Shown one piece after another: positions 19,140 through 31,104 of a DNA stretch of 53,725 nt. A program made the translations under genes and the position numbers. The stretch is from Gracilimonas tropica DSM 19535. Its GTDB lineage: Bacteria > Bacteroidota > Rhodothermia > Balneolales > Balneolaceae. Where the stretch lies: assembly GCF_000375425.1 (NCBI RefSeq), contig NZ_AQXG01000011.1:1-53725 (forward strand), read 5' to 3'. Within the stretch, counting starts at the first letter, position 1, and each line of letters starts with the position of its first letter. A model generated the notes under the pieces. It did no database searches. It saw nothing but the letters and a program-made list of their open reading frames with translations, and was not told the origin of the DNA.

Positions 19140-21593
19140 TCAAAACAACCGCGCCAAGCTCACCCCAAAATAAAAGCCGGGATTGTCGACACGAAAGGCT
19201 ACATCAGCACGGAACAGGTTGAAGATATTGCTTAGGGAAAGTCCAGCTTCGATGTGAAGATCTTCGGTAATAGAGGGATCAAAACCATAGCGGGTGTTGA
19301 ATTCGTCAATTTGTGCTTGCTTCACCCAGGTTTTCCCAATCCCCCCAAAAGCAATGATACTTAAACCGGTTTTGGAAGCATCTCGCCAGCCCAGCATTTC
19401 CAAGGGGACACTTTTAAAATTATGCTCGGCGTTCAAAGCAAAATAGCTTGCACCCTCGTACGGAATAAACCGCTTGGCACGGAAGGCCCCAAAAGGGGTA
19501 AATAGTCCGGGAGCCACATCCAGTACTTCATTTTTTTGGATAGGAAGGTCACCCAGGTACGTTCCGGCATTCAGTCGCATATTCAAGGTATTCGGGAAAA
19601 AACGGCGTTGGTAGAATGTCTGAAATTCGCGATAGAGATCTATTTTAAACCGTGTGTAGTTCCAGCTGCTCCCCATGAACGTGGCAGACTGCTCCACCGT
19701 AAATTGGAAATCATTGGCACCCACGGCTCCAAAGGCCTTTTTATTCTCACCGTCTTCCCAAGTAAAACGAAGGGCGCTTAAATTTCCTTCATCCACATAG
19801 CTGTTGGGGCGCTGAACCTCATCCCTGCCTAAAATATCATAGTCGGTTTTATAGGATATGCTTTGGTGATCTTCATAAAGATAGCTTAACCGAAGAGTCC
19901 CAGGAAGTTCTCTCAGCATATAAGCACCGCCAACTTCAATTCCTTCGTTCCGGAAATAGTCAAAATAATCCGGATAGCCCAATAAGGAAACAACCGATGT
20001 AAGGTATGGATTGAACATATCGGAATTATACCGGGTGTCATTTTTTGCTCGGTATTCCGTAAAAACAGCAAACCTTCGGCTTTCTTTTAATGGCCACCAG
20101 GCTACCCGGGCTCCGTATGAAAATGATTCCATCCCTTCCCCATATCCAGTACTGTACCCTGCAAAAACCCTCGACATCAAACGGTTATCCACATAACGGC
20201 GCTCATGCTTAAGTCCGCCATAGAACGCATCTACCCGATTGAATTTTACCTGAGGAGTCAGGTTTTGAGTCAGCTTAGAAAAGAAACCATTTCCCGAACC
20301 GCCTCCGGATGAATTAGCCGAACCGCCACCCTGAGATGAGCCGGAATCTCCCTCTTCATCCCAATCAATAAAACGAGTAAGGAAACCTTCCGGACGAAAC
20401 GCTTTTTCGAGGGAAGCCGTACTATCCACAGTTTCATATGCGATTTCCTCTTCCGTATCTAAGGGAATGATCTCAATTTCATTCACAAAGAGAGAATCGC
20501 CGGAATTTATAGTGGTAGAATCTACCATAAGCTGATCCCGGCTTTTAAAGATCGTATCCGGAAGGGAGATATTTACTTCATAATCGCTGATTCGTGCAAC
20601 CTGTTTAAAACCAATGGGCGGAAACCGAAGTCCTACCAGACCTACTTCCACTAATCCTTCGATTCGTACATCTACCGGCAGCCAGAAGTCCCCTCCAAAA
20701 TTACTGAACTGCTGCTTATAGGAAAGGTCAAAATCCTGAACAGGAGGAGGAAACTGCACCACCGAATTCGGCTTTAAATCCATTTCAAGTACCGCATATT
20801 CCTCTCCCAATACAAATATGGTTCCCTCGAAAAGAGGCTGAAGCTTTCGCTTGGAATCAACCTTTAGCTCGTACACCACCTGTCCGTCCAGCGACTGAAT
20901 GTCTTCCAGGCTGAAGTCATAAAACTTCAACGCATCCGGATGGGTAACCCCTACCACATCAAAGCCGGCGATATCCAGGTTGTCATCGTAGAAATTCGGG
21001 AGATAACTGACCCCTGCAAAGTTATCGGCAGCATCAATATTAGCGGTTTGCCGTTTTGATTTCAGGATCTCACGCGAGCCTTTTTCTTTATCCCAATATG
21101 CTTCGGAAATACTTTCGGTAATGGAGATGATAGTGGTATCATTTCTAAGCTGCTGACGGGTGTAGGCTTCTGCTTTATACGTCTCAAGGTTAGCCCTCCA
21201 TTGCTGCTTACGCCGGATCACCTCCCGCATAATTGCTATAGCCGGATCTTCGCCCGTTACTACGATCTCCCCCATTTCAGCTACGGATGGCTTCAATAAA
21301 AAATCTATGGGCCCGGTGTTTTCTGTAACCGTTTGCTCCTGACTTTCAAACCCGATAAAACGAACCATGATCGTCACCGGAAGTTCTGAGACCAAGAGGC
21401 TGAACTCCCCATCCTGATTTGAGATCGTTCCCTTGTAGGTATCCTTGATGATCACATGTGCGGCAGGAAGAGGTTCTCCGGTTTCTGCATCCACAATTTT
21501 ACCGGTGACTCTATGCTGATGCTGAGCAAATACTAAAAAACTGCTCATCATGAGCGATGGAAAGAGAATTAAAAAAAAGACCCATTTTTGCAT
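19140..21593 (-). CDS. DUF5686-type outer-membrane protein with carboxypeptidase-like domain
   Basis: 817 aa. Signal peptide ending VFAQ (about 24), then a carboxypeptidase-regulatory-like beta-sandwich (about 28-105, GKIVDAETGEPLPAAHV), then the DUF5686 region (from about 120, AIMREVIRRKQQW; LETYKAEAYTRQQL), a Ser/Gly-rich low-complexity linker (SGSSQGGGSANSSGGGSG, about 426-443), and a C-terminal beta-barrel ending ARLF. Predicted outer-membrane protein of unknown function. Convergent with the propeller genes. Confidence 0.82.
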   Translation of the reverse strand: MQKWVFFLILFPSLMMSSFLVFAQHQHRVTGKIVDAETGEPLPAAHVIIKDTYKGTISNQDGEFSLLVSELPVTIMVRFIGFESQEQTVTENTGPIDFLLKPSVAEMGEIVVTGEDPAIAIMREVIRRKQQWRANLETYKAEAYTRQQLRNDTTIISITESISEAYWDKEKGSREILKSKRQTANIDAADNFAGVSYLPNFYDDNLDIAGFDVVGVTHPDALKFYDFSLEDIQSLDGQVVYELKVDSKRKLQPLFEGTIFVLGEEYAVLEMDLKPNSVVQFPPPVQDFDLSYKQQFSNFGGDFWLPVDVRIEGLVEVGLVGLRFPPIGFKQVARISDYEVNISLPDTIFKSRDQLMVDSTTINSGDSLFVNEIEIIPLDTEEEIAYETVDSTASLEKAFRPEGFLTRFIDWDEEGDSGSSQGGGSANSSGGGSGNGFFSKLTQNLTPQVKFNRVDAFYGGLKHERRYVDNRLMSRVFAGYSTGYGEGMESFSYGARVAWWPLKESRRFAVFTEYRAKNDTRYNSDMFNPYLTSVVSLLGYPDYFDYFRNEGIEVGGAYMLRELPGTLRLSYLYEDHQSISYKTDYDILGRDEVQRPNSYVDEGNLSALRFTWEDGENKKAFGAVGANDFQFTVEQSATFMGSSWNYTRFKIDLYREFQTFYQRRFFPNTLNMRLNAGTYLGDLPIQKNEVLDVAPGLFTPFGAFRAKRFIPYEGASYFALNAEHNFKSVPLEMLGWRDASKTGLSIIAFGGIGKTWVKQAQIDEFNTRYGFDPSITEDLHIEAGLSLSNIFNLFRADVAFRVDNPGFYFGVSLARLF

Positions 21594-21675
21594 TTGGAAA
21601 CGCAGGTTAAATTAAAACATAAGAACAACAGACCGCTTTTACTCATAAACAGCTGATTAGTTACATGAACCTACG

Positions 21676-21683
21676 TATCTTTT
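21676..21683 (+). promoter_or_regulatory. Possible -7 element for tRNA-Arg
   Basis: TATCTTTT matches TAnnTTTG in seven of eight positions and ends 23 nt before the tRNA, the same distance as for tRNA-Leu. No clear -33 element is seen. Confidence 0.35.
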
Positions 21684-21706
21684 ACAAGAACATTGCCTTT
21701 AACATT

Positions 21707-21779
21707 GACCCTGTAGTTCAATCGGATAGAATAGGGACCTCCTAAGTCCTAGATCTGGGTTCGATTCCCGGCGGGGTCA
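21707..21779 (+). tRNA. tRNA-Arg(CCT), integration site
   Basis: Cloverleaf with acceptor GACCCTG / CGGGGTC (one G-T pair), D-arm GTTC...GAAT, anticodon stem GGGAC/GTCCT (one G-T pair) around loop CTCCTAA with anticodon CCT, and T-arm CTGGGTTCGATTCCCGG. No encoded CCA. Its last 14 bases plus one more are repeated at 30376-30390, so it served as the attachment site of the downstream element and remains intact. Confidence 0.95.
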
Positions 21780-21780
21780 C
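21766..21780 (+). repeat. attL core, overlapping the tRNA-Arg 3' end
   Basis: TCCCGGCGGGGTCAC, identical to 30376-30390. It reconstitutes the T-arm and acceptor 3' side of the tRNA. Confidence 0.88.
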
Positions 21781-21839
21781 ATAGTTATTTTACTAAAAAA
21801 ATTAATATCAGTTACTTAACACGTATTATTTACTTTATT

Positions 21840-21861
21840 AGTACAGTAATTGGTACAGGTA
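21840..21861 (+). repeat. Left copy of 22-bp terminal repeat (putative integrase arm site)
   Basis: AGTACAGTA, then AATTGG-type centre, then TACAGGTA; it matches 30241-30262 in 20 of 22 positions and in the same orientation. A further TACAGG follows at once. It lies about 60 bp inside attL. The interval 21781-22052 otherwise holds no convincing gene. Confidence 0.7.
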
Positions 21862-22052
21862 CAGGCTTATAAATGCCGGATTAGCCGGGTTTTAATGTAC
21901 AGAAAAATTTTTGCCGGTTACTCTCTTTTTGTGCGTAAATCATGGGCAGGGGGGAATATGGGAAATATGCCAAAAAACGGCCTTCATATTTTAATTGTGA
22001 GGCCTCACCTCTTCCATCTTAATGATGTAACATTCAGAATAAACCCACTCAT

Positions 22053-22319
22053 ATGAAGAATATTCAATCTCTGGACTTACCTAAACAAGAGCTTTTAAAA
22101 CTTAACAAAGCTTGTGGGCTTTATGCTGCCAATTCCAATATCACTTTCAAAGTTCTCAATCAATCTAAAAACGAATTGATTATTGCAGTACGCCAAAGCA
22201 AAAACGTGAAAGGCAAATATCTGGAAGCAAAAGAACTCATCAATCGCACAAAGGATCTATTTAAAGAATTTTTCCCTAATCACTCTATTCACGTACGACC
22301 GATACCATATACCAACTAA
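22053..22319 (+). CDS. Small unidentified protein at the left end of the element
   Basis: 88 aa, basic, no signal or membrane segment. A first half (QELLKLNKACGLYAANSNITFKV) and a second half (AKELINRTKDLFKEFFPNHSIHVRPIPY) look like a compact alpha/beta fold. It stands alone on the plus strand between attL and the operator region. I do not recognise it; a DNA-binding or regulatory protein of the element is possible by position only. ATG start. Confidence 0.6.
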   Translation: MKNIQSLDLPKQELLKLNKACGLYAANSNITFKVLNQSKNELIIAVRQSKNVKGKYLEAKELINRTKDLFKEFFPNHSIHVRPIPYTN

Positions 22320-22354
22320 CTAAGAAAACGCTTCTTTTCCCTCATCCACTCTCA

Positions 22355-22396
22355 AAATCAGGCAAAATTCGCAAAAATATTTTTTTGGCCTGATTT
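22355..22396. repeat. 9-bp inverted repeat after the 88-aa gene
   Basis: AAATCAGGC (22355-22363) and GCCTGATTT (22388-22396) enclose a strongly AT-rich loop. No T-run follows, so a terminator is uncertain. Confidence 0.45.
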
Positions 22397-22402
22397 ACCG
22401 GC

Positions 22403-22507
22403 TTCCTATTTGGAAATAATTGTAGCCCTCCAGCCCTTGAAATTACCTGGTAGGAAATCGCGCCTCTTTTTCTTACTAACTTTTGCTCAAAAATTCCTAA
22501 TAGGAAA
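22403..22507. promoter_or_regulatory. Three-copy 14-bp palindromic operator cluster
   Basis: Three related palindromes: TTCCTATTTGGAAA (22403-22416), TACCTGGTAGGAAA (22444-22457) and TTCCTAATAGGAAA (22494-22507), starts 41 and 50 bp apart. Consensus TWCCTRNTAGGAAA with a half-site of CCT/AGG. The cluster lies upstream of the 22683-23815 operon inside the element, a layout typical of repressor operators or replication iterons. No partner protein is identified. Confidence 0.6.
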
Positions 22508-22581
22508 GTTTTTAGCTATAAAATGGGCAATTTATGAATAATAGGTAATCACTTAATTATATTGCATTTACTTGTTTTTAA

Positions 22582-22605
22582 TTTTCAGCATATATAAACT
22601 GAAAA
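22582..22605. promoter_or_regulatory. Inverted repeat in the operon control region
   Basis: TTTTCAG (22582-22588) and CTGAAAA (22599-22605) flank CATATATAAA, a likely regulator site or part of the promoter. Confidence 0.4.
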
Positions 22606-22622
22606 GAGTTAAACAAAAAAAT

Positions 22623-22659
22623 GAAAGCAGGCCAGTTTTTGAGGACATGACCTGCTTTC
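22623..22659 (+). promoter_or_regulatory. Hairpin in the leader of the three-gene operon
   Basis: Nine-bp perfect stem GAAAGCAGG / CCTGCTTTC with a 19-nt loop, ending 23 nt before the first start codon. No T-run follows, so it is unlikely to be a simple terminator; it may control translation or attenuate transcription. Confidence 0.45.
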
Positions 22660-22682
22660 TGTAAACATAACGAGGTATAAAA

Positions 22683-22865
22683 ATGACTAAATCAGAAGAT
22701 GGAAACAAGCGGTTCAAAATAGAAGCCCAGAAAATGCGAATGGAAGAAGAACAGAGGGTAAAGAATAACGCGCTTCAAGCTGTCATCAATCGCACCAACC
22801 GCCAAATTGAGAAGGAGTGTTTCAGTGATAATGGGCAGAACTCTTCAACCCTAATTCCTGCATAA
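22683..22865 (+). CDS. Small charged protein, first gene of the element operon
   Basis: 60 aa, very rich in Lys, Glu, Arg and Asn (RFKIEAQKMRMEEEQRVKNN), predicted helical. ATG start preceded by CGAGG about 8 nt away (AACGAGGTATAAAAATG). The next gene begins 1 nt after its stop. I do not recognise it; real status is supported mainly by operon position and ribosome binding site. Confidence 0.6.
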   Translation: MTKSEDGNKRFKIEAQKMRMEEEQRVKNNALQAVINRTNRQIEKECFSDNGQNSSTLIPA

Positions 22866-22866
22866 A

Positions 22867-23340
22867 ATGGAAACTGAAAAATCTATCGACATAGAAAAAG
22901 CCGCCAAAGCTCTCGAAACCCTTGGTGCAGAACTAAAAAAGGCCATCAAAAAACATTCTTATGATGATGTTGCTGGAGCCTTTAGAAAAAAATACCCTTT
23001 CAAGCTTCACCAACTGGAAGAGTTTGAAATTATTGATACCATTTTTGCCATCACTAAGCCAAGCGTTGATACCCACACGCTCAGCACAGATGGAGCCATG
23101 TATTATATGAAATCGGATGCCCTTATTGAGTTGCTGGAGTTAGGAGACTGCGCAACCTCCCTCAGGTCAAAACTTCCAGAGCAATCCCTAAAAAATGAAG
23201 CCCTAAACGCTGTTATCGTTGATTGCGAATCTATCGGTAATGATGCCAGAACTCATTTATTGGAACGCCTGAGTGAGTATGAATTTGATATAAAGGATTT
23301 AACCCAAACACTTAACCAAAGGAATAATGGACAAAATTAA
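22867..23340 (+). CDS. Unidentified element protein A (possible cargo)
   Basis: 157 aa, acidic and helix-rich, without signal or membrane segments. Motifs that can be seen: KKAIKKHSYDDVAGAFRKK (about 38-56) and DGAMYYMKSDALIELLELGD (about 78-97). Parts resemble the next protein (KEKHEDDVAEAM; ESFRYMSDEAAY), suggesting an old duplication. Its last 14 nt overlap the start of the next gene. Function unknown; position in a facing operon with operators suggests regulated cargo. Confidence 0.7.
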   Translation: METEKSIDIEKAAKALETLGAELKKAIKKHSYDDVAGAFRKKYPFKLHQLEEFEIIDTIFAITKPSVDTHTLSTDGAMYYMKSDALIELLELGDCATSLRSKLPEQSLKNEALNAVIVDCESIGNDARTHLLERLSEYEFDIKDLTQTLNQRNNGQN

Positions 23341-23815
23341 ACTGAATCCAGGTATAAAGAAAAAAGCAGATGAATTATTTGAGCTTATTGAGAAGGAAGT
23401 CAAAGAGAAGCATGAAGATGATGTTGCTGAAGCTATGGCAGCAGAATGGGGCGACTACCTCAAAAACTCGAAAGGATTTGACATGCTCAATTATGGAATG
23501 ATCTTAACTCTTACAGAGTCAGAACACGCAAAATATAGCCTTGAAGAATCATTCCGCTATATGAGTGATGAAGCCGCTTATACAGTGAGCTATCTTGCTC
23601 ATTATGCATTGAGGGCTGCAAAAAAATGGAGTGATGTTTTAGCAGATATCAAAGAGGCAAAAAGCTTTCAAATTGATAGCTTGCATACGCTGGATATTTT
23701 TATTCGAGAACTCAAAAGCCTTGCCCATGAAGTAGAAAAAGAAACAGCTACTCTGTGGATTTATAGAGCTAAAGGATACCGGGAAGAACTCGAAAAGATA
23801 AAGAATGCCAGTTAA
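23327..23815 (+). CDS. Unidentified element protein B (possible cargo)
   Basis: 162 aa, soluble, helix-rich: KKKADELFELIEKEVKEKHE at the N-terminus, a central AAYTVSYLAHYALRAAKKW and a C-terminal LWIYRAKGYREELEKIK. Probably paralogous to the preceding protein. ATG lies inside the previous gene, so translation is probably coupled and the two may form a complex (inference). Ends 27 nt before the convergent minus-strand genes. Confidence 0.7.
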   Translation: MDKIKLNPGIKKKADELFELIEKEVKEKHEDDVAEAMAAEWGDYLKNSKGFDMLNYGMILTLTESEHAKYSLEESFRYMSDEAAYTVSYLAHYALRAAKKWSDVLADIKEAKSFQIDSLHTLDIFIRELKSLAHEVEKETATLWIYRAKGYREELEKIKNAS

Positions 23816-23842
23816 GCAGATCACCAATAACCGGCACTTATT

Positions 23843-24004
23843 TTAGCGGCCGTTATCCGGTAAAAAAATTAAAGTCCGTTCATCCCCTGGAGAGCGTTCA
23901 ATCTTTGGGGGATGTTCCGGGTCGTAAATTATCACTTGGGCGGTTTGCTGATCCACTTTTTTCTTTTCGGCTTGATAGTCAGTTATCAGCTTTTCAATTC
24001 GCAT
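23843..24004 (-). CDS. 53-residue gene overlapping its upstream neighbour
   Basis: A complete frame of 53 codons, ATG at 24004-24002 to TAA at 23845-23843: MRIEKLITDYQAEKK at the start, then a Pro-rich YDPEHPPKIERSPGDE and a final LPDNGR. Its ATG overlaps the end of the preceding minus-strand gene by 11 nt, as in the other overlaps in this cluster. Too small for a function call, but the composition and coupling favour a real gene. Last gene of the minus-strand unit. Confidence 0.55.
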   Translation of the reverse strand: MRIEKLITDYQAEKKKVDQQTAQVIIYDPEHPPKIERSPGDERTLIFLPDNGR

Positions 24005-24344
24005 AGCTTCGGGATTGAAGGTTAAATTTATGCATTAGATAGGCTTCAAAGATGAACGGCGTTTTATAGCGCTGCAATTCTTTAGGCCATGCCGGTTCCT
24101 GATTGTGGGAAATAATTACTTCCCGGATTGGCTTCCTGATATTGTTTTCATTCTCAAAGGCTTGCAACCTGTGGAACAGATCCAGATAGCGCCGGGCTTG
24201 GGCTTCTGTGAGTGTTTCCAGATCGGAAAAATCCCATCCCGATTGTTCCCGGTACTCTATCAAAAAAACCTTTTGGGCTTTGAGTGTGCTGTATTTCTCC
24301 GGGGTGATCTCATTGGTTTGGGATAGCAGTTCATCTATTCGCAT
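23994..24344 (-). CDS. Small unidentified protein of the element
   Basis: 116 aa from ATG 24344 (MRIDELLSQTNEITPEKYS). An upstream TTG would extend it by 20 residues into the previous gene and is less likely. Predicted helical with EYREQSGWDFSDLETLTEAQ (about 28-47); no membrane segment. Overlaps the preceding CCCH/HGG-protein gene by 14 nt and the next gene by 11 nt. The shared MRI-acid-x-L start with the 53-aa protein is curious. Function unknown. Confidence 0.65.
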   Translation of the reverse strand: MRIDELLSQTNEITPEKYSTLKAQKVFLIEYREQSGWDFSDLETLTEAQARRYLDLFHRLQAFENENNIRKPIREVIISHNQEPAWPKELQRYKTPFIFEAYLMHKFNLQSRSYAN

Positions 24345-24861
24345 GGTCGGAAATTTTGAAGGATTGGAGTTTTGAAATAATGGTTTCGGCTTCAGCTTGG
24401 CCAATGTGGTTGATTAGAAGAGCTTCCATCCAGTCCAGGAATAGCTTCAAATCTTCGGCCGGGATAAGCCTTTCCTGTTCTAACAGGATCTTTTGGCTCC
24501 GCTGTTTACAGTGTACCAAGCGTTCAATGATCCGGGAAATAGTGTCCAGATCGTGAAGATCGGAAAGGTTGTTCTCCAGCGCTTTGGCTGAAATAATTAG
24601 CGCCTGCATCAATTTGATTTCATTATCCGGGTTGATAAGTTCCTCACTGGATGTCTCTTCCAATTCATCCAGCACGGATTTTAAAGAGCTGCCTGCGTGT
24701 TTGCTGTATAGGCCGTGTTTGTATCGCTTGCTTTGGGTGCCCTTCAAACTTTTTCCACCATGTAAATGGCACTTTGTGGAACCGGGCACCGGCGCTTTTT
24801 GGCACGGCTTACCGGTTGCTTTGGTTCGGGCACCACAAATATTGTTTTCCTGCTTTTCCAT
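24331..24861 (-). CDS. Phage-type CCCH/HGG-motif protein, possible small terminase-like
   Basis: 176 aa. The N-terminus has Cys9, Cys20, Cys31 and His34 in CGARTKATGKPC ... CHLHGGKS, the short zinc-type/HGGxS motif found in small phage proteins often encoded beside packaging genes. The rest is helical (ELINPDNEIKLMQALIIS; IIERLVHCKQRSQKILLEQ). A role as a small terminase-like DNA-recognition factor is plausible from family and element context, but the protein has not been aligned to one here. ATG start; overlaps the next gene by 14 nt. Confidence 0.65.
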   Translation of the reverse strand: MEKQENNICGARTKATGKPCQKAPVPGSTKCHLHGGKSLKGTQSKRYKHGLYSKHAGSSLKSVLDELEETSSEELINPDNEIKLMQALIISAKALENNLSDLHDLDTISRIIERLVHCKQRSQKILLEQERLIPAEDLKLFLDWMEALLINHIGQAEAETIISKLQSFKISDHANR

Positions 24862-24912
24862 AGGGTATCCAGTTAAAAAGGGGTGTTCATGGGGTATTCA
24901 AAAAAAGTGCTG

Positions 24913-25629
24913 TTAAGCTACTTCTTTCGCTTTGTGTTCTTTTTCCCTGGAGCGTTTCAAATCTGCTTTTTCTGCCAGTGAAGCAATCGGGGTTTTTAAG
25001 TCCAGTTTATACTTAGTTCCTGAAGGGGATGTATCCCGGTAAAACCGATAAGATAGAAAGAAGTCCGTTCGGGCGGCTTCAGTGGAAATACCGGCTTCAG
25101 CTTCCACTTGCTGAATGAAAGTTTTCCTTTCGGCTTCGGCCTCACTGTCATTGTCTGTTTTGGTAGTGGTCTTAAAGCCGGGTGCTACCTTATCGGCGGT
25201 TTGCATAAAGGTTTCGGCGGCCTGCTTCCATTTCATTTTTTCATCGAAAACAGCCAGCAGTTTTTCGTAAAGTTCGTTATCCAGTTCTTTCACTTTCTCC
25301 AGATAGTTGCATTTAGCATCTTCGGCCTGCTTTGCCAGTTCTACACACGTTTGAAAATGGTTTTTCCGGGCGGCTTTAGCTTCAGCCTGGATAAGCTGCT
25401 GCTGCAACTCTTCCAAATGTTCCCGGCGCTCTTCGAGGGCTTCGGTTACTATTTGCCTGTGGGAAATAAGGTTCTGTATTTCCTTTTCCCCTTCATTGGA
25501 AAGAATGGCCTTAGCATCCTTTTTCTTTTGGAACAGCTTTTCTTCCAGTTCGGAATATTTGGCTTCCAGATCCTTTATTTCGGTTTCAACTTGGGTGATG
25601 TTCTTTTTAATTTTTTCGGGTGTGTTCAT
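24913..25629 (-). CDS. Coiled-coil element protein
   Basis: 238 aa. Residues 1-90 form a strong coiled coil (heptads in EIKDLEAKYSELEEKLFQKK and ALEERREHLEELQQQL). The middle part (about 120-165) carries MKWKQAAETFMQTADKVAPG; the C-terminus is a different, basic domain (RTDFFLSYRFYRDTSPSGTK, ending KEHKAKEVA). The first 90 residues match the next-listed shorter protein, so the pair arose by duplication with an added domain. Function unknown; a scaffold or structural role is possible. Confidence 0.7.
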   Translation of the reverse strand: MNTPEKIKKNITQVETEIKDLEAKYSELEEKLFQKKKDAKAILSNEGEKEIQNLISHRQIVTEALEERREHLEELQQQLIQAEAKAARKNHFQTCVELAKQAEDAKCNYLEKVKELDNELYEKLLAVFDEKMKWKQAAETFMQTADKVAPGFKTTTKTDNDSEAEAERKTFIQQVEAEAGISTEAARTDFFLSYRFYRDTSPSGTKYKLDLKTPIASLAEKADLKRSREKEHKAKEVA

Positions 25630-25659
25630 CAGTCTGTTTTTTGTCTGTTGGTGATTTGT

Positions 25660-25986
25660 TTAATTCGTTTTTAAACCGGCTGCTTTTCGGTTTTTTTCGA
25701 GAGCTTTCTTCAAATAATCGCCGGAATTGGCTTCTTTCTTTTGGGCTTCCTGGAGCTGAATTTGGAGTGATTCAAGTTTTTCTCGCTTCTCTTCAATCGC
25801 TTCTTTAATGATTTCACGGGATGATTTTATCTTTTTGATTTTCTCTTGCCCTTCATCACTGATAAGATCTTCATGGTCGTTTTTAATCTCATACAGTTCC
25901 CGCTCCAGCTTAGTGTTACGCTTTTCCAGTTCACCAACTTCCTTTTCGGTTCGGTTAATCTGATTAGTTATCTTTTCTGAGTTCAT
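25660..25986 (-). CDS. Short coiled-coil element protein, paralogue
   Basis: 108 aa, nearly all coiled coil: EVGELEKRNTKLERELYEIK, then ISDEGQEKIKKIKSSREIIK and EEKREKLESLQIQLQEAQKK. The phrases LSNEGEKEIQNL and EERREHLEELQQQLIQAEAK in the longer neighbour align with it. It lies 30 nt upstream of that gene and may interact with it (inference). ATG start; a 167-bp promoter region lies upstream. Confidence 0.7.
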   Translation of the reverse strand: MNSEKITNQINRTEKEVGELEKRNTKLERELYEIKNDHEDLISDEGQEKIKKIKSSREIIKEAIEEKREKLESLQIQLQEAQKKEANSGDYLKKALEKNRKAAGLKTN

Positions 25987-26038
25987 TTTTTCGTGGTTTT
26001 ATTGGTTTGGTAAAAATTAAAATTCTTGGGGTTTATCT

Positions 26039-26057
26039 GTAGTATTTCCTGTACTAC
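26039..26057. promoter_or_regulatory. Inverted repeat in the upstream region of the coiled-coil genes
   Basis: GTAGTA (26039-26044) and TACTAC (26052-26057). Read on the minus strand it contains AGTACAGG, the same octamer as in the element's terminal repeats. It may be an operator for the coiled-coil operon. The gap 25987-26153 holds no gene. Confidence 0.35.
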
Positions 26058-26153
26058 TATTTTAATTCATTATTAAATAACAGCTACTTAAAGCCTGTAT
26101 TTGCAATCCTGACAGGAATAATGCTGCTATTTTTGGCTATCATTATCAGTTGT

Positions 26154-27794
26154 TTAGAACGGCGTTTCATCTTCGACCGGATATCCTTCCAGTCTTGCCA
26201 TTTCTTTGTTAAAAAGTTGCTGTTCTATTGCTTCAGTTGCTTCAGTTCCTTCAGTATTGCCATTTACAGGCGTTAAAGCTTGTTTTTGTCCTGAAGCTTT
26301 ACTGAATGTTGCTTCATATTCCTTCAGTGTTCCTTCAGTATCTAAACCGTTGTTTTTATACGTTTCTGAATCTTCTGAAGCTTCTGAAGCTTTCAACGGG
26401 CTTTTTTTAATGAAATATTCGTTTCCGTTTTCAGTGTGTACTCTATCCCAAGTAATACCGATCTGTCTAAGTGCTGGAGATAGTCGAGTTAGACGGCTTT
26501 TTAGTGTCCGGGTGGTGGGCAAATACCGTTCATTTGTTTCGGGTGAAACTTCTTTGATCTTCTCAATTAAATGTGTGGCTGTGTTTCTGTATTCAGAAGT
26601 GTTAGCAACTATTTTCCGGATGGCACTTGCTAAGATGTCGCTATCCAGTCCGGTTTCAACGGCATTGTTTCTGTTATTGAAATAAAGGCTTACAACATCA
26701 TTCCAATCATACGCTTTCGTGGCTGCCTGTACCCATCGGGCAAAATCTGCCATGCGTGGCAATCGGTTTAATTTAATTTCGTCCTGATATTTCAGGCCGT
26801 GGCAAAGTCCAACTAAAAGCGCTCCAAAAATTCCGGGCTTAGCTTGTTCAAATTCATTCCAGAACGTGCTTTCATCCTTCCTTTTATCCTGTGGTATGGC
26901 TGGAAGGCTTAAGACGATGGCACGGTCTAATAGGTCGCCCCTGGTTGCAATGTCATCAATACCATTCAAGATAATCGGTCGCCTGATCTGAAATATTTTT
27001 TCCTCACTATCAGTGTATAGTTTCCGTGCAGAAAAGCCGCCGCCGGTGCAAATTCTACAAAGTGCATCTGAAAGCCATGATTTCACCCCGGATAAGTTGT
27101 CTAAACAAATAACCCGTGCATTTTCACCCTGAATAATAAGTTCCCGTTCATCCCTTGGGGCTGTTCTTATTGGCGCTGTATTTGGGTCTGTAAGCGCTCG
27201 AATGATTTTTGATGTAGTTGACTTAGCAGAACCCTGTTCGCCTTGCAGAATCAAGATAGGGCATGCAATATCGGGATTAAGTGCAGCTAACATCCAAGCT
27301 ATCAAAAGTTTGAAGTCGCCTTCACTTTCATAATTTAAAAAACGCTTTAGATCTTCAATTTCCCCTTGTTCGGGAATGGGTAGGGCTTCGAGTCCTGAAG
27401 GTCTGTGAAAATAAGTAGCTTCAGTGGTTAGATTGTTATATCCGCCCTTTGTTACTTCAGCAATGGTTTTATCTTCATCCCCTAAATCAATAAAGATTTT
27501 TCCGTCCTGAAAGGCGTTTCTTACATGAACCTTTTTTGTAAATCTACCTTCAAAAAGTGCTTTGCCTTCAGCTTGCTCAATAGCTTCCTGTACGGCTTGT
27601 GTATGTGGTGCTTTTCCTTCGAGATGATAAAATTTACGTTGAATATGCCGCCTAAATGTTGTACTTCTTACCGGGTGGCATTCCCCATTTATACGTGCCC
27701 AAGCTAATCCGGCCGGGTCTCGAAATAAAACGGCGGAATAGTCGATAATATCCAGTAGTATTTCGCCGGTTGTAAGTTTTTCTTTCTTACTCAC
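26154..27794 (-). CDS. AAA+/SF3-like replication ATPase (VapE/phage-helicase type)
   Basis: 546 aa. Walker A GEQGSAKST (185-193), Walker B RVICLD (227-232), sensor IILNG (275-279) and arginine-finger segment RGDLLDR (285-291) show an active ATPase of the sort found in phage and satellite replication proteins with a helicase part. The C-terminal 90 residues are Glu/Thr/Ala/Ser-rich (SEASEDSE; EGTEATEA) and probably flexible. GTG start, 2 nt after the HTH gene stop. No primase motif was recognised. Likely replicates the excised element (inference). Confidence 0.82.
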   Translation of the reverse strand: MSKKEKLTTGEILLDIIDYSAVLFRDPAGLAWARINGECHPVRSTTFRRHIQRKFYHLEGKAPHTQAVQEAIEQAEGKALFEGRFTKKVHVRNAFQDGKIFIDLGDEDKTIAEVTKGGYNNLTTEATYFHRPSGLEALPIPEQGEIEDLKRFLNYESEGDFKLLIAWMLAALNPDIACPILILQGEQGSAKSTTSKIIRALTDPNTAPIRTAPRDERELIIQGENARVICLDNLSGVKSWLSDALCRICTGGGFSARKLYTDSEEKIFQIRRPIILNGIDDIATRGDLLDRAIVLSLPAIPQDKRKDESTFWNEFEQAKPGIFGALLVGLCHGLKYQDEIKLNRLPRMADFARWVQAATKAYDWNDVVSLYFNNRNNAVETGLDSDILASAIRKIVANTSEYRNTATHLIEKIKEVSPETNERYLPTTRTLKSRLTRLSPALRQIGITWDRVHTENGNEYFIKKSPLKASEASEDSETYKNNGLDTEGTLKEYEATFSKASGQKQALTPVNGNTEGTEATEAIEQQLFNKEMARLEGYPVEDETPF

Positions 27795-27796
27795 GC

Positions 27797-28075
27797 TTAC
27801 CCTCTGTTATTGTCCAAAACCCTATCTAAGTCAGTGCGGGTGTATCGGATGGATCCGTTAATTTTCCGAAAAGGAACAGTTCCATCATTCCGCCAGCGCT
27901 GCAAGGTTGAACGCGAAACACCCAAATATTTCATTGCCTCACTGGTATTTAATACTTCTTTTTCCGGCGCGGGCTTGGTGGGCTTTGATGCTGCCAGCGC
28001 TTTAGTGATTTCATCCGCTACAATCCGGCGGAGTTCCGTTTGCGGTGTTACTACTATCTCATTACTCATAGCCAT
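27797..28075 (-). CDS. Excisionase/MerR-type helix-turn-helix protein
   Basis: 92 aa with a C-terminal winged-helix HTH: LNTSEAMKYLGVSRSTLQRWR (about 42-62) followed by the wing PFRKINGSIRYTRTDLDRVL. This is the pattern of excisionases and AlpA-like regulators of integrative elements. The N-terminus is a Pro/Lys-rich linker. Start ATG 28075 (alternative 28069). A perfect 14-bp inverted repeat begins at its start codon, suggesting autoregulation. Two nt before the ATPase gene. Confidence 0.82.
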   Translation of the reverse strand: MAMSNEIVVTPQTELRRIVADEITKALAASKPTKPAPEKEVLNTSEAMKYLGVSRSTLQRWRNDGTVPFRKINGSIRYTRTDLDRVLDNNRG

Positions 28076-28119
28076 TTAATTTGCGTTAAAATTGTTGAAA
28101 TCAAATAACGCAAATTAAA
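28075..28119. promoter_or_regulatory. Perfect 14-bp inverted repeat overlapping the excisionase-gene start
   Basis: TTTAATTTGCGTTA (28075-28088) and its exact complement (28106-28119) with a 17-nt spacer. Likely operator for the excisionase-replication operon, or part of an origin. Arms are too far apart for an ordinary terminator and no T-run follows. Confidence 0.65.
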
Positions 28120-28122
28120 TTA

Positions 28123-28210
28123 GTGTGGTTAATTTAAAACCCACACAATCAAGTCTATAAACTAAAGGCAGGCAATGGTTTAGGGGTGTGGTATTTTATA
28201 AAAACCACAC
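28123..28210. repeat. Two GTGTGG/CCACAC inverted repeats
   Basis: GTGTGG (28123-28128) with CCACAC (28141-28146), and GTGTGGT (28186-28192) with ACCACAC (28204-28210) around an AT loop. Both are followed by AAT, giving CCACACAAT twice as a direct repeat (28141-28149, 28205-28213). They lie between the excisionase and the 28239-28973 gene and may be origin iterons or regulator sites. The second may form a hairpin after that gene's regulatory gap. Confidence 0.6.
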
Positions 28211-28238
28211 AATTCAGAATGAACCTGTATGGGTTGTG

Positions 28239-28973
28239 CTATTTTGGTTTATTCCAATCCAGTGATTGGCGAATTTGGCCTTCTGAAAGGCACTGTTTTT
28301 TACTAATTCCTAACTTGTTAATGATATGGGGAATTATTTTATCTACTACAAACGGCTTTTGGCTGCCATTATATTCCTTCTTCCAAACACCCCGGTTTTT
28401 TGATAGATACTTTTGGGCAATTTCCTTTTGTTCATCTGACTTATGCTTCTTTCTTTTGTCTTTTTTTGATGCTTCATCTTCCAGAAGATATTCAATTCTT
28501 TTTTGCTCTTTTAAAATGGCTTCCTCAAAGGCCTTATCCCATTCTGTTAATTCATCACCTGCCAATAATTTACTATTTCTTTGTGTGGTAGCTTTAGAAA
28601 GGCAATCATTAATAATAGCCCGCTGTTCTTTTAATGGCATAGCAGAAATGGAATGAATAAAGCTTTTAAAATGATAGGACTGCATTTTCTTCAAGTGCTG
28701 CCTATGTTTATTGATATAAGCCTGTAGTTTTGGAACTGAAGGAAAATCCAGTAACTCAAATAAAGGATTGTTTCGATTAGGTTCTAAAATATCAGCATGA
28801 ACAGGTATTTTATATTCACCAATATTAACAGCCTCTTTGTGGGTGGGGTTTTTGCTCCCCTTCGGCGGTAATTGAGAAAGTTTCATTCTTTCCTTTAGAT
28901 CTTTGAAATTTGCCTTTATATCCTCTTTATCCAGTTTTTGGAAATACCGGCTTTGTTTCTTTTTTGAATCCAT
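28239..28973 (-). CDS. Basic unidentified protein next to the integrase
   Basis: 244 aa from ATG 28973 (a TTG 21 nt earlier is less likely). Very Lys-rich throughout (KKKQSRYFQKLDKED; EASKKDKRKKHKSDEQKE), helical, no membrane segment. A C-terminal INKLGISKKQCLSEGQIRQSL may be a small HTH-like segment. It begins 30 nt after the integrase stop and probably shares its transcript. I do not recognise it; DNA binding is plausible from charge and place. Confidence 0.65.
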   Translation of the reverse strand: MDSKKKQSRYFQKLDKEDIKANFKDLKERMKLSQLPPKGSKNPTHKEAVNIGEYKIPVHADILEPNRNNPLFELLDFPSVPKLQAYINKHRQHLKKMQSYHFKSFIHSISAMPLKEQRAIINDCLSKATTQRNSKLLAGDELTEWDKAFEEAILKEQKRIEYLLEDEASKKDKRKKHKSDEQKEIAQKYLSKNRGVWKKEYNGSQKPFVVDKIIPHIINKLGISKKQCLSEGQIRQSLDWNKPK

Positions 28974-29003
28974 GAATATGATGCTTTGGTGCAATTTGTA
29001 TAA

Positions 29004-30215
29004 TTAAAATTCTTCATATACGCTTTGCACTTTCTTATCGGTTGTTTCATTATCTAAAGCTTTCAGATAACTTTCGGTTGTCTTTAGGGATGCATGTCCT
29101 AAACTGTTTGAAATGGCATGTAAATCAGTGCCCTTTTTCCGGGCAATATCCGCGTAACTATGCCGGGCTGTATGGAATGAAACGCGCTTATTAATTGCGG
29201 CTTTCTTTCTAAGGTTATTCAGCTCTTTATTTACATAGGCGTTTTTACTGCCTAACTCATTAACTAAGGTTTCCCGGTTGTCTAAATTCCGCTTGGTATT
29301 CAGCAAAGGAAAGACATAATCATTAGGGGATGGATTGTCTTTATACTTATCCAGTATTGCCCGCGCCGGTGGAAATACTTTAACGCTATGGGCTTCACTT
29401 GTCTTTCGCATTTCGTACCGGATGAAGTCGCCTTCAATGTTTTTCCATTTGAGCTGTGAAACATCACTGTATCTCATTCCATAGGTAAAGAATGAAAACA
29501 GAAACATGTCTAAGGCTATTTGCTGTACCGGATTATCATTCGTTTCTACACTTGCCAGCGCTTTAATTTCATCCGCCGATAACTTAACCCGGCTAACCTT
29601 GGGCTGTGTTAATTTGAACTTAAAAAACGGATTCTTTTCCTGTGGAAACTGGCTTTCCCTAATGGCTTCATAAAGTATTGCCCGGATGCACTTTAAATTG
29701 GAGTGTATCGTATTTGGTGAATTATCCTTTTCATCTGCCAGCCATGCGGAAAACTCTTTTAGCCATGTTACCGTAACATCTTTAAACTGCAATTTGCCGC
29801 CGGTGTATTCCTCTATTTTGGATAAAACAGCATCGTATCTTTTCCCGGTTCGCACATTAACCCGGCGCTTTTGTTTGGCAAAGGTCTTTCCATACTCAAT
29901 GAATGAACCCCGGTATTCCTTAGATTTTGCCTTTTTCTTTAGAATATCCGCGTTAACATTTTGGTTATCCGCCTGCAATTGATAGGCTTCATCCCTAATG
30001 GCTTTCACCTTATCGGAAATAATCTTATTCAAGTGTGCAGCATCAATAAAATCATTTTCCCGCACTTCTCTTTTGTTTTCATTCCATAACCCCGGTTTCA
30101 CCTTAAGCCCGGTTGATACATAGCGGGTTTTACCGGCATCTGCTATGCGAATATAAATAGGCTTTTGCCCTTCCTTATCTTTAGGCGGTCTTAATACGGC
30201 TTTGATTGTTGGCAT
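29004..30215 (-). CDS. Tyrosine recombinase integrase
   Basis: 403 aa. N-terminal arm-binding domain (to about 90), core-binding SAM-like domain (about 105-195) and catalytic domain with Arg in GMRYSD (about 255), the HTARHSY box (HxxR, about 348-354), and LGHASLKTTESYL with the His and nucleophilic Tyr (about 371-383). All catalytic residues are present. The gene reads inward from the right end and is close to the terminal repeat and attR. It should integrate and, with an excisionase, excise the element. Confidence 0.95.
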   Translation of the reverse strand: MPTIKAVLRPPKDKEGQKPIYIRIADAGKTRYVSTGLKVKPGLWNENKREVRENDFIDAAHLNKIISDKVKAIRDEAYQLQADNQNVNADILKKKAKSKEYRGSFIEYGKTFAKQKRRVNVRTGKRYDAVLSKIEEYTGGKLQFKDVTVTWLKEFSAWLADEKDNSPNTIHSNLKCIRAILYEAIRESQFPQEKNPFFKFKLTQPKVSRVKLSADEIKALASVETNDNPVQQIALDMFLFSFFTYGMRYSDVSQLKWKNIEGDFIRYEMRKTSEAHSVKVFPPARAILDKYKDNPSPNDYVFPLLNTKRNLDNRETLVNELGSKNAYVNKELNNLRKKAAINKRVSFHTARHSYADIARKKGTDLHAISNSLGHASLKTTESYLKALDNETTDKKVQSVYEEF

Positions 30216-30240
30216 AACCTCAAACTTTGAACCTGTACCA

Positions 30241-30262
30241 AGTACAGTATTTAGTACAGGTA
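30241..30262 (+). repeat. Right copy of 22-bp terminal repeat (putative integrase arm site)
   Basis: Matches 21840-21861 at 20 of 22 positions in the same orientation, with CCTGTACC just before it as an inverted relative. It lies between the integrase start and attR, so it may also control the integrase promoter. Confidence 0.7.
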
Positions 30263-30375
30263 AATTGCGATTTATTTAAAGTTACGTTGTTTCAATGTGA
30301 TTCAAAAATGCTTATAATGGTTCGTGAAGGGCTTTATTTGAACCTATTTCGATTCACCAAGTTTTATATTTGCAA

Positions 30376-30390
30376 TCCCGGCGGGGTCAC
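30376..30390 (+). repeat. attR core
   Basis: TCCCGGCGGGGTCAC, an isolated copy of the tRNA-Arg 3' end at the right boundary of the element, with no tRNA body around it. Confidence 0.88.
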
Positions 30391-30401
30391 TCAAATATCG
30401 A

Positions 30402-30435
30402 ATATTGAACATTCAATATTAAACACTGAATGTTC
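30402..30435. repeat. Overlapping inverted repeats beside attR
   Basis: AATATTGAA / TTCAATATT with a 2-nt spacer, and AACATTCA / TGAATGTT with an 11-nt loop. They lie just after the HAD-gene stop and may form its terminator, though there is no T-run. Confidence 0.4.
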
Positions 30436-31104
30436 TTAGTTTTCTTTTATCGCCAAAAGATCTTCCAGCTGTCCCACCGACAAGCCTTCGAAATCATCTA
30501 TTACCAAGGCGCAGGTACTCATTTCTTTGTGTGAATGCGTGGTAGCAACGCCAACAACAACCGCTCCGGCATTCTTTCCCGATTGCACCCCTGAGATGGA
30601 ATCCTCAAATACGATACAGTTTTCAGGATTCACCCCAACCGCCCGGGCTGCTTTCAGGTAGGGCTCCGGATCGGGTTTACTTTTGGTTACATGAGATGAA
30701 TTCAATACCGCATCAAACCGGTCGGTGATACCAAGCTCCTCCAGAATGAGATCGGCATTTTCGGCAGGTGCGGAGGTAGCCACCACTTTCTTGATCCCGG
30801 CTGCGTCCAACCGGTCCAGAAACTCAATGAAGCCCGGTACGATATGCTCTTTCGGCTTAAAAACATCCCGAAACATTTGCTCCTTTTCATCAGTGTAGGC
30901 GTTGATGGTTTCTTGAGAAACTTTACCAAAAACATTGGGAATCCAGTCTTGATTGGTGCGTCCGTATACTTTTTCCCGGAGTTTTTTCTCGGTAAGGGTG
31001 ACTCCCTTCTGCTCACAAAATTTGATCAGGATCTCTTTATGAATGGGATTGCTGTGAACAATTACCCCATCCATATCAAAAAGTATGGCTTCAATTTCCT
31101 GCAT
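30436..31104 (-). CDS. HAD phosphatase, beta-phosphoglucomutase-like
   Basis: 222 aa HAD subfamily IA. Motif I DMDGVIVHS (about 10-18), motif II Ser/Thr in VATSAP (about 111-116), Lys in SKPDPEPYLKAA (about 138-149) and acidic motif VFEDSISGVQSGKNAG (about 164-179). The Gly/Val-Ile after DMDG and the SxxG loop are like the beta-phosphoglucomutase group, but the phosphorylated substrate is not known. It lies just outside the element, so the element sits between tRNA-Arg and this gene. Confidence 0.88.
   Translation of the reverse strand: MQEIEAILFDMDGVIVHSNPIHKEILIKFCEQKGVTLTEKKLREKVYGRTNQDWIPNVFGKVSQETINAYTDEKEQMFRDVFKPKEHIVPGFIEFLDRLDAAGIKKVVATSAPAENADLILEELGITDRFDAVLNSSHVTKSKPDPEPYLKAARAVGVNPENCIVFEDSISGVQSGKNAGAVVVGVATTHSHKEMSTCALVIDDFEGLSVGQLEDLLAIKEN

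What the first reader, a model, noticed from the sequence alone, without database searches (positions are those of the whole stretch)
21766..30390. An 8.6-kb integrated element in tRNA-Arg with defined ends
A 15-bp copy of the tRNA 3' end recurs at 30376-30390, an integrase gene lies against the far end, and a coherent set of integration, excision and replication genes fills the interval. tRNA 3' ends are established targets of tyrosine integrases. The gene set does not match any specific element class I can name.
Basis: partly seen in the sequence, partly recalled or inferred. Interest (0 to 1): 0.8.

Follow-up and report, generated by a model that had tools for sequence, protein, structure and literature searches.

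The report
Phage-satellite-like island in tRNA-Arg
An 8.6-kb block of DNA is inserted at the end of an arginine tRNA gene and looks like a parasite of bacterial viruses: it carries its own integration and replication genes and a likely DNA-packaging gene, but no recognisable genes for a virus particle.

Summary
A 15-bp exact copy of the tRNA-Arg(CCT) 3' end recurs at 30376-30390. A same-genus genome (G004) has the uninterrupted site: tRNA-Arg, then the HAD gene after 42 bp, against 45 bp in the window with the element taken out. A complete arm-binding integrase and a doubled arm-type motif inside both ends fit. This is an integrated element with defined ends.

Best reading: a PICI-like phage satellite. 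Order: inward int, small gene, HTH_17 excisionase-like gene, phage-type helicase, coiled-coil pair, HGGxSTG zinc-finger protein. Phage-contig genes sharing that protein's N-terminal part usually lie upstream of the large terminase, so it is probably a small terminase subunit. No relaxase, large terminase, portal or tail gene was recognised.

Six islands from five other genomes of the family, each at a tRNA with int at the far end, share modules with it; one holds DUF2280 in the HGG gene's slot. Mobility, helper and packaging are inferred, not shown. My searches listed no satellite from this family.

The parts
21707..21780 (+). tRNA-Arg (anticodon CCT), intact; its 3' end is the attachment site
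   Evidence: ARAGORN; Rfam
21766..21780 (+). attL: 15-bp repeat TCCCGGCGGGGTCAC (tRNA 3' end)
   Evidence: exact match
21840..21861 (+). candidate arm-type integrase site, doubled motif AGTACAGTAATTGGTACAGGTA, centre 77 bp from the centre of the repeat
   Evidence: 20 of 22 identical to the right-end copy; 0 of 200 internal segment pairs as good
22053..22319 (+). 88-aa protein, no known family
   Evidence: ORF; no Pfam, PHROG, NCBIfam or PADLOC hit
22683..22865 (+). 60-aa protein, homologue (54%) in island L079
22867..23340 (+). 157-aa protein, 73% identical homologue in island L079
   Evidence: no confident family
23327..23815 (+). 162-aa protein, 58% identical homologue in island L079
   Evidence: no confident family
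23843..24004 (-). 53-aa protein; homologues in L079 and L076 near the packaging-type gene; not scanned against any family library
23994..24404 (-). small protein downstream of the HGG gene; homologues in L075 and L077 (start probably near 24344)
24331..24861 (-). HGGxSTG zinc-finger-like protein, probable terminase small subunit
   Evidence: NCBIfam HGG_STG 9.7e-10; 4 full-length island relatives; viral relatives sharing mainly the N-terminal part are usually followed by a large terminase; invariant C9, C20, C31, H34
24913..25629 (-). 238-aa coiled-coil-like protein, upstream of the HGG gene; possible scaffold or packaging partner (inferred)
   Evidence: homologues beside the packaging-type gene in L075, L076, L079
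25660..25986 (-). 108-aa second, short copy of the coiled-coil gene (70% identical over 89 aa to the L079 protein)
26154..27794 (-). 546-aa phage-type replicative helicase/primase-like ATPase
   Evidence: PHROG DNA primase 5.9e-6; 28% over 65% of its length to Microbacterium phage Zeta1847 helicase/primase; 66% relative in island L026
27797..28075 (-). HTH_17 (AlpA/excisionase-like) DNA-binding protein
   Evidence: Pfam HTH_17 1.7e-15; PHROG excisionase and transcriptional regulator 7.3e-14
28061..28213 (.). repeat cluster upstream of the HTH gene (inverted repeat around TTTAATTTGCGTTA/TAACGCAAATTAAA and ACCACAC/GTGTGGT boxes); candidate operator or origin (inferred)
28239..28994 (-). 251-aa protein immediately downstream of int; partial relative (40% over 101 aa) in L076 at the same place
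   Evidence: no confident family
29004..30215 (-). tyrosine integrase with Arm-DNA-bind_5, SAM_5 and catalytic domains; R, HxxR, H and Y motifs present (motif roles recalled)
   Evidence: Pfam; sequence read-out
30241..30262 (+). candidate arm-type integrase site, AGTACAGTATTTAGTACAGGTA, centre 132 bp from the centre of the repeat
30376..30390 (+). attR: second copy of the 15-bp repeat

Best explanation
The interval is a phage satellite of the PICI type (or of a group that works like it), integrated at the 3' end of tRNA-Arg(CCT). Shown here: defined ends, an empty site in a relative, a complete arm-binding tyrosine integrase, an HTH_17 excisionase-like gene, a phage-type helicase-like gene, a gene whose N-terminal domain in phage contigs usually belongs to the gene before the large terminase, and no recognised relaxase, large terminase, portal, capsid or tail gene. 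Inferred: integrase and HTH protein excise the island as a circle when a helper phage grows in the cell; the helicase replicates it; the HGGxSTG protein acts as the satellite's own small terminase subunit and directs the helper's large terminase to satellite DNA, with the coiled-coil protein beside it as a scaffold or packaging partner; the DNA leaves in helper particles and reintegrates at tRNA-Arg in a new host, restoring the tRNA 3' end.
For: Ends and empty site. Integrase domains. HTH_17 and excisionase PHROG. Helicase relatives in phages and islands. HGG gene: viral contigs gave 80 loci kept of 135 confirmed; in 79 of 80 a same-strand frame of at least 330 aa starts within 4 kb downstream; 54 of those 79 match one large-terminase PHROG alone and 73 of 79 join a terminase-seeded profile by iteration, a lenient test. 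Of the 20 phage records listed, 3 annotate the gene as terminase small subunit; in the two of these looked at, the large terminase follows about 2-2.7 kb on, across small reverse-strand genes. Slot exchange: in island L079 the place of the HGG gene, between the coiled-coil gene and the 53/59-aa gene, holds DUF2280 (Pfam 7.8e-30), and DUF2280 is directly upstream of a large terminase in the 3 phages checked, out of 318 records with a match. Family of islands: six islands from five other genomes of the family (L026 and L078 from one genome; L075, L076, L077, L079), each bounded by a repeat of a tRNA 3' part of 12-62 bp, sizes 7.6, 7.7, 8.3, 8.6, 8.9 and 15.0 kb, all six with int at the tRNA-distal end pointing inward. 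L026 and two further loci whose ends were not determined (L033, L169) carry an HK97-type capsid gene without other recognised virion genes; a capsid gene is the most frequent late gene of gram-negative PICIs, 21 of 29 (PMC10111431, passages).
Against: No helper phage, excision, packaging or transduction was shown. The similarity of the HGG protein to phage proteins is limited: tblastn matches in annotated phages cover 18-30% of it in the rows listed, and most viral-contig matches cover only the N-terminal half or less. 17 of the 20 phage records listed do not call the gene a terminase subunit. Short HGG proteins in G005 and G056 are not beside a large terminase, so the motif alone does not prove a small terminase. 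One helicase relative (L034) lies beside a MobC-like gene (Pfam 7.5e-7), so this replication module also occurs in what may be a mobilizable element. Two more helicase relatives in viral contigs lie in ordinary phage surroundings and one beside an integrase and restriction-like genes (judged from sequence starts). The helicase has no Pfam family above its cut-off. No virome contig that I looked into resembled this island, though HGG loci were examined only for the next large frame.
Confidence: 0.72

Rival explanations
1. An integrative mobilizable element that transfers by conjugation with help of another element.
For: Integrase, excisionase-like and replication genes are also the core of such elements (recalled); the helicase relative in L034 sits beside a MobC-like gene.
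Against: No relaxase or mobilization family among the element's proteins scanned: 12 of 13 genes against Pfam, 10 of 13 against PHROGs and NCBIfam. Five islands carry the HGG gene and one DUF2280, both found upstream of large terminases in phages.
Confidence: 0.1
2. A decayed prophage that has lost its structural genes.
For: Phage-type integrase, helicase and terminase-type gene; no structural genes; the second coiled-coil copy is truncated.
Against: The main genes are open frames, the integrase is complete, both repeats are intact, int points inward and is followed (after one gene) by an HTH_17 gene as in PICIs rather than prophages (PMC10111431 passages), and islands at other tRNAs have the same plan, five of six at 7.6-8.9 kb.
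Confidence: 0.08
3. An integrative plasmid-like island that replicates but has no dedicated route between cells; the HGG protein is an ordinary DNA-binding protein.
For: HGG proteins exist away from terminases, and only its N-terminal part resembles the phage proteins in most matches.
Against: The four island HGG relatives match over nearly the full length (47-59% identity), and DUF2280 takes the same slot in L079.
Confidence: 0.08

Closest known systems
Gram-negative PICIs, including helper-embedded PICIs (PMC10111431, passages)
   Same: int pointing inward, HTH_17/AlpA-type gene, replication gene, then late-type genes; 15 or more reference PICIs remapped to tRNA genes there; relatives here with a capsid gene; a doubled motif on both sides of the core, 77 and 132 bp here against 81 and 132 bp for helper-embedded PICIs (motif sequence differs; which side corresponds to which is my inference).
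   Different: Host group; 8.6 kb against 10-20 kb; HGG-type packaging gene; no recognised primase Pfam domain; four genes on the other strand; no Bro-type gene recognised; induction not shown.
PICMI, minimalist satellites of Vibrionaceae (PMC10803314, passages)
   Same: int, a gene beside or overlapping int (4-nt overlap in L032, L033, L078; 9-nt gap in the window), an HTH_17/AlpA-type gene and a primase-like gene; small size (PICMI115 6.1 kb). The gene order of PICMI was not checked.
   Different: Not next to fis; carries a packaging-type gene.
SaPI-type PICIs with their own small terminase subunit (introduction passages of PMC10690885; details recalled)
   Same: A satellite-borne small-terminase-type gene with partner genes beside it.
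   Different: Different protein family; small-terminase and scaffold roles are inferred here.
Capsid-forming PICIs (definition seen in PMC10690885)
   Same: Relatives L026, L033, L169 carry a capsid gene.
   Different: The window island has none, and in the relatives no portal, protease or large terminase was recognised.

Membership tests
Integrated element at a tRNA 3' end (tyrosine integrase) | direct repeat of the tRNA 3' end bounding the element | tested here: met
Integrated element at a tRNA 3' end (tyrosine integrase) | clean empty site in a relative | tested here: met
   (G004; 1 of 5 same-genus genomes with a close HAD orthologue, the other 4 hold other DNA there)
Gram-negative PICI | inward-pointing tyrosine integrase | tested here: met
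   criterion from PMC10111431 passages
Gram-negative PICI | AlpA/HTH_17 regulator in the integration zone | tested here: met
   HTH_17 1.7e-15; one gene lies between it and int
Gram-negative PICI | replication primase gene (pri) | tested here: inconclusive
   PHROG DNA primase 5.9e-6 but no primase Pfam family
Gram-negative PICI | most genes in one direction | tested here: inconclusive
   9 of 13 genes on the minus strand, 4 on the plus strand
Gram-negative PICI | genome of 10-20 kb | tested here: not met
   8.6 kb
Gram-negative PICI | no tail or full virion gene set | tested here: met
   none recognised: 12 of 13 genes against Pfam, 10 of 13 against PHROGs and NCBIfam
Gram-negative PICI | induction and packaging by a helper phage | not testable with these tools
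   needs experiment
PICI with its own TerS (SaPI type) | satellite-encoded small terminase subunit | tested here: inconclusive
   HGG gene and large-terminase neighbourhood in phages; mostly N-terminal similarity; activity not shown
PICMI | integration next to fis | tested here: not met
   tRNA-Arg site; definition
cfPICI | capsid, protease, portal and terminase genes | tested here: not met
   definition
Tycheposon / VEIME | defining gene sets of those families | not tested
   only mentions in other papers were seen
Integrative mobilizable element | relaxase or mobilization gene | tested here: not met
   none recognised

The most novel reading that the evidence does not exclude
The Balneolaceae carry their own lineage of phage satellites, built as a mosaic around one plan: a tRNA-targeted integrase with doubled arm sites at class-specific spacing, exchangeable replication modules, and one exchangeable 'packaging slot' filled by different small-terminase types (HGGxSTG zinc-finger or DUF2280), coupled to a coiled-coil protein that redirects helper capsid assembly; sister islands instead carry a capsid gene of their own.
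Probability: 0.35. Interest if true: 0.65.

Novelty: new variant of a known kind. Interest (0 to 1): 0.5.

Why it matters
Phage satellites are best known from a few bacterial groups. A set of tRNA islands with swapped terminase-type genes in the Balneolaceae would extend satellites to a group where my searches listed none, and would give the widespread, functionally unnamed HGGxSTG proteins a testable role in DNA packaging.

Tried and rejected
Single-sequence scans of viral contigs with the helicase, HGG and coiled-coil proteins confirmed no relatives; the coiled-coil alignment also found none; the helicase alignment found three. The phages collection gave one helicase relative, in two records of one phage. 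Defence function: no PADLOC hit for the six window proteins scanned. Weak Pfam and NCBIfam hits (for example HopBF1 at 0.0055, PipX, SLIDE) lie far below cut-offs and were dismissed. PDB sequence searches with the HGG and helicase alignments gave nothing specific. Rfam found only the tRNA in 21000-31000. The Mu-like prophage of the own genome (L170) came to mind as a helper; this was not tested. Arm-type repeats were not convincing in L078 (best match AT-rich and misplaced; 1 of 200 internal pairs as good) and weak in L077 (18 of 22; 12 of 200 internal pairs as good). L075 and L076 are closely related (integrase 90%, HGG 93%, coiled-coil 94%) and not independent. The L077 att repeat is only 12 bp. 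In one search the gene taken as int's neighbour in L075 was probably the wrong one. The structure alignment A7 held 57 viral proteins from the 80 HGG loci; duplicates and some others were left out when the lists for searches were made.

Literature: listings with starts of abstracts only; two searches found no paper. Searches showed 15 of 403 and 15 of 1,124 papers. Passages were read in PMC11389934, PMC10803314, PMC10690885 and PMC10111431. PMC12324425 (only paper) was not read. No whole paper was read.
Full report
Observation. The window holds tRNA-Arg(CCT) at 21707-21780. A 15-bp exact repeat of its 3' end lies at 21766-21780 and 30376-30390 and nowhere else in the window on either strand. 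Between the copies I count 13 likely genes among the open frames (choice mine). The integrase gene starts 160 bp inside the right copy and reads inward.

Empty site. Searching 38 genomes, the window's own among them, for the flanking HAD protein gave five same-genus orthologues at 62-79% identity. In G004 the tRNA-Arg is followed by the HAD gene after 42 bp, and the sequence aligns through the joined flanks of the window, where the gap would be 45 bp. In the other four the gap holds other DNA: under 1 kb in G003 and G005, 3.4 kb with one 952-aa frame in G007, and 9.7 kb with genes that look metabolic or transposase-like by their sequence starts in G009. The gene upstream of the tRNA looks conserved in G007 and G009 by eye. 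None of the 10 other same-genus genomes has the helicase.

Integration module. The integrase has Arm-DNA-bind_5 (1.4e-12), Phage_int_SAM_5 (4e-17) and Phage_integrase (7e-17) domains and the R, HxxR, H and Y motifs (motif roles recalled). A doubled 22-bp motif lies inside both ends in the same direction, 20 of 22 identical; 200 internal segment pairs gave at most 18. Its centres lie 77 bp (tRNA side) and 132 bp (int side) from the centre of the repeat. In the other islands, measured from the last 15 bp of each repeat as a notional core, the best pairs are: L026 82/122 (22 of 22), L077 74/136 (18 of 22, weak), L075 99/180 and L076 97/182 (20 of 22 each), L079 93/185 (22 of 22); L078 gave no proper pair. 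Spacing may follow integrase type: the window, L026 and L077 integrases are alike (30-39% identity), and L075, L076 and L079 form another set (36-90%); L078 belongs with the first set and does not show the motif. For helper-embedded PICIs a doubled motif 81 bp upstream and 132 bp downstream of the attP centre is reported and called unique to them (PMC10111431); the motif here has another sequence. The HTH gene (HTH_17, 1.7e-15) has a repeat cluster upstream.

Replication. The 546-aa protein matches a PHROG DNA primase (5.9e-6) and a Microbacterium phage helicase/primase at 28%. Profile search of 93 family genomes found 5 carriers including the window genome; of 395 genomes drawn from the phylum, 22 match at E <= 0.001, the window genome included.

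Packaging-type gene. The 24331-24861 protein has the HGG_STG domain (9.7e-10). In 93 family genomes 7 match: the window genome, four nearly full-length relatives in islands (L075-L078), and two short N-terminal matches not beside a terminase. With the alignment of five island proteins, viral contigs gave 210 candidate stretches, 135 confirmed, 80 kept; most matches cover only the N-terminal half or less of the protein. In 79 of the 80 a same-strand frame of at least 330 aa starts within 4 kb; one contig ends too soon. Of these 79, 54 match PHROG 2 (large terminase), and further large-terminase families match others; an iterated profile seeded with four large terminases reaches 73 of 79 (transitive and therefore lenient; six not reached). 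Of 20 phage records listed, 3 annotate the gene as a terminase small subunit and 17 do not; I looked at two of the three. C9, C20, C31 and H34 are invariant in 58 aligned proteins, suggesting a zinc finger. The AlphaFold model shows this N-terminal part and five helices (mean pLDDT 77.5, pTM 0.42).

Family of islands. Islands were found through the coiled-coil protein (4 of 93 genomes, the window's included), the HGG protein and the helicase. L075 and L076 (tRNA-Arg ACG, 49- and 50-bp repeats), L077 (tRNA-Met, 12 bp), L078 (tRNA-Val, 19 bp), L079 (tRNA-Leu, 62 bp) and L026 (tRNA-Leu, 23 bp) span 8.9, 8.3, 7.6, 7.7, 15.0 and 8.6 kb. L026 and L078 come from one genome, G077. In all six, and in the window, int is at the tRNA-distal end and points inward. 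The modules are mosaic: the window shares its 60-, 157- and 162-aa genes, coiled-coil genes and 53-aa gene with L079 (44-73%), its HGG gene with L075-L078 (48-59%), and its helicase with L026 (65%), L032 (61%), L033 (56%) and L034 (51%). In L079 the slot of the HGG gene is taken by DUF2280, which stands directly upstream of a large terminase in the 3 phages checked of 318 records with a match. L026, L033 and a second locus of the window's own genome (L169) carry an HK97-type capsid gene without other recognised virion genes; the ends of L033 and L169 were not determined and not all their frames were scanned.

Interpretation and limits. The plan int, HTH_17, replication, late-type genes with int inward is what separates PICIs from prophages in PMC10111431 (passages). 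No relaxase or virion gene was recognised, in scans of 12 of 13 genes against Pfam and 10 of 13 against PHROGs and NCBIfam; the 53-aa gene was not scanned. With the terminase-type gene, a phage satellite is the best reading. Unshown: excision, helper, packaging, and the activity of the HGG and coiled-coil proteins. The searches for satellites in this group or phylum listed no report by title and abstract start, in an open-access library and partly from capped lists. The family name Balneolaceae comes from the record title of L026; a contig of the same length is held in G077, which the genome tool places in the window's family.

Noticed in passing
L169 2743-11480 (own genome, G000:C1 about 654.7-663.5 kb): A second satellite-like locus in the window's own genome: int, HTH, AAA and BT4734-like replication genes, small genes, one HK97-type capsid gene and a terminase-5-like HTH gene (20.0 bits, cut-off 20.3); no portal, protease or large terminase recognised; ends not determined.
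   Followed up: partly
L170 (own genome, G000:C6 144-163.9 kb): A Mu-like prophage region with a large-terminase match and portal-, capsid- and tape-measure-like genes (roles judged from sequence, recalled).
   Followed up: no
L079 10911-14198: The 15-kb relative at tRNA-Leu carries a 1095-aa protein that looks like a tail tape-measure protein (recalled resemblance; PHROG of unknown function 8.5e-9), odd for a satellite.
   Followed up: no
L034 7159-9771: A helicase relative beside two similar small genes, one of them MobC-like by Pfam, and no integrase seen in the 19 kb fetched: the replication module may also serve a mobilizable element.
   Followed up: partly
L073 1450-1716; L074 1450-1719: Short 88-89-aa HGG proteins, each after a gene of 180 or 253 aa, not beside a large terminase in the 3.2 kb held; another context for the HGG domain.
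   Followed up: no
L062 8491-18203: In G009 the same tRNA-Arg to HAD interval holds 9.7 kb of unrelated genes (transporter-like, transposase-like by sequence start); no repeat of the tRNA end was found in the stretch.
   Followed up: partly
L079 7915-9111; L033 14392-14667: Kinase-like fragments (PADLOC mad6 and PD-T4-6 hits for the L079 7918-8556 protein) shared between two islands; possible defence cargo.
   Followed up: no
L076 14984-16273: A second, different integrase gene just outside the att repeat of L076, suggesting another element in tandem.
   Followed up: no
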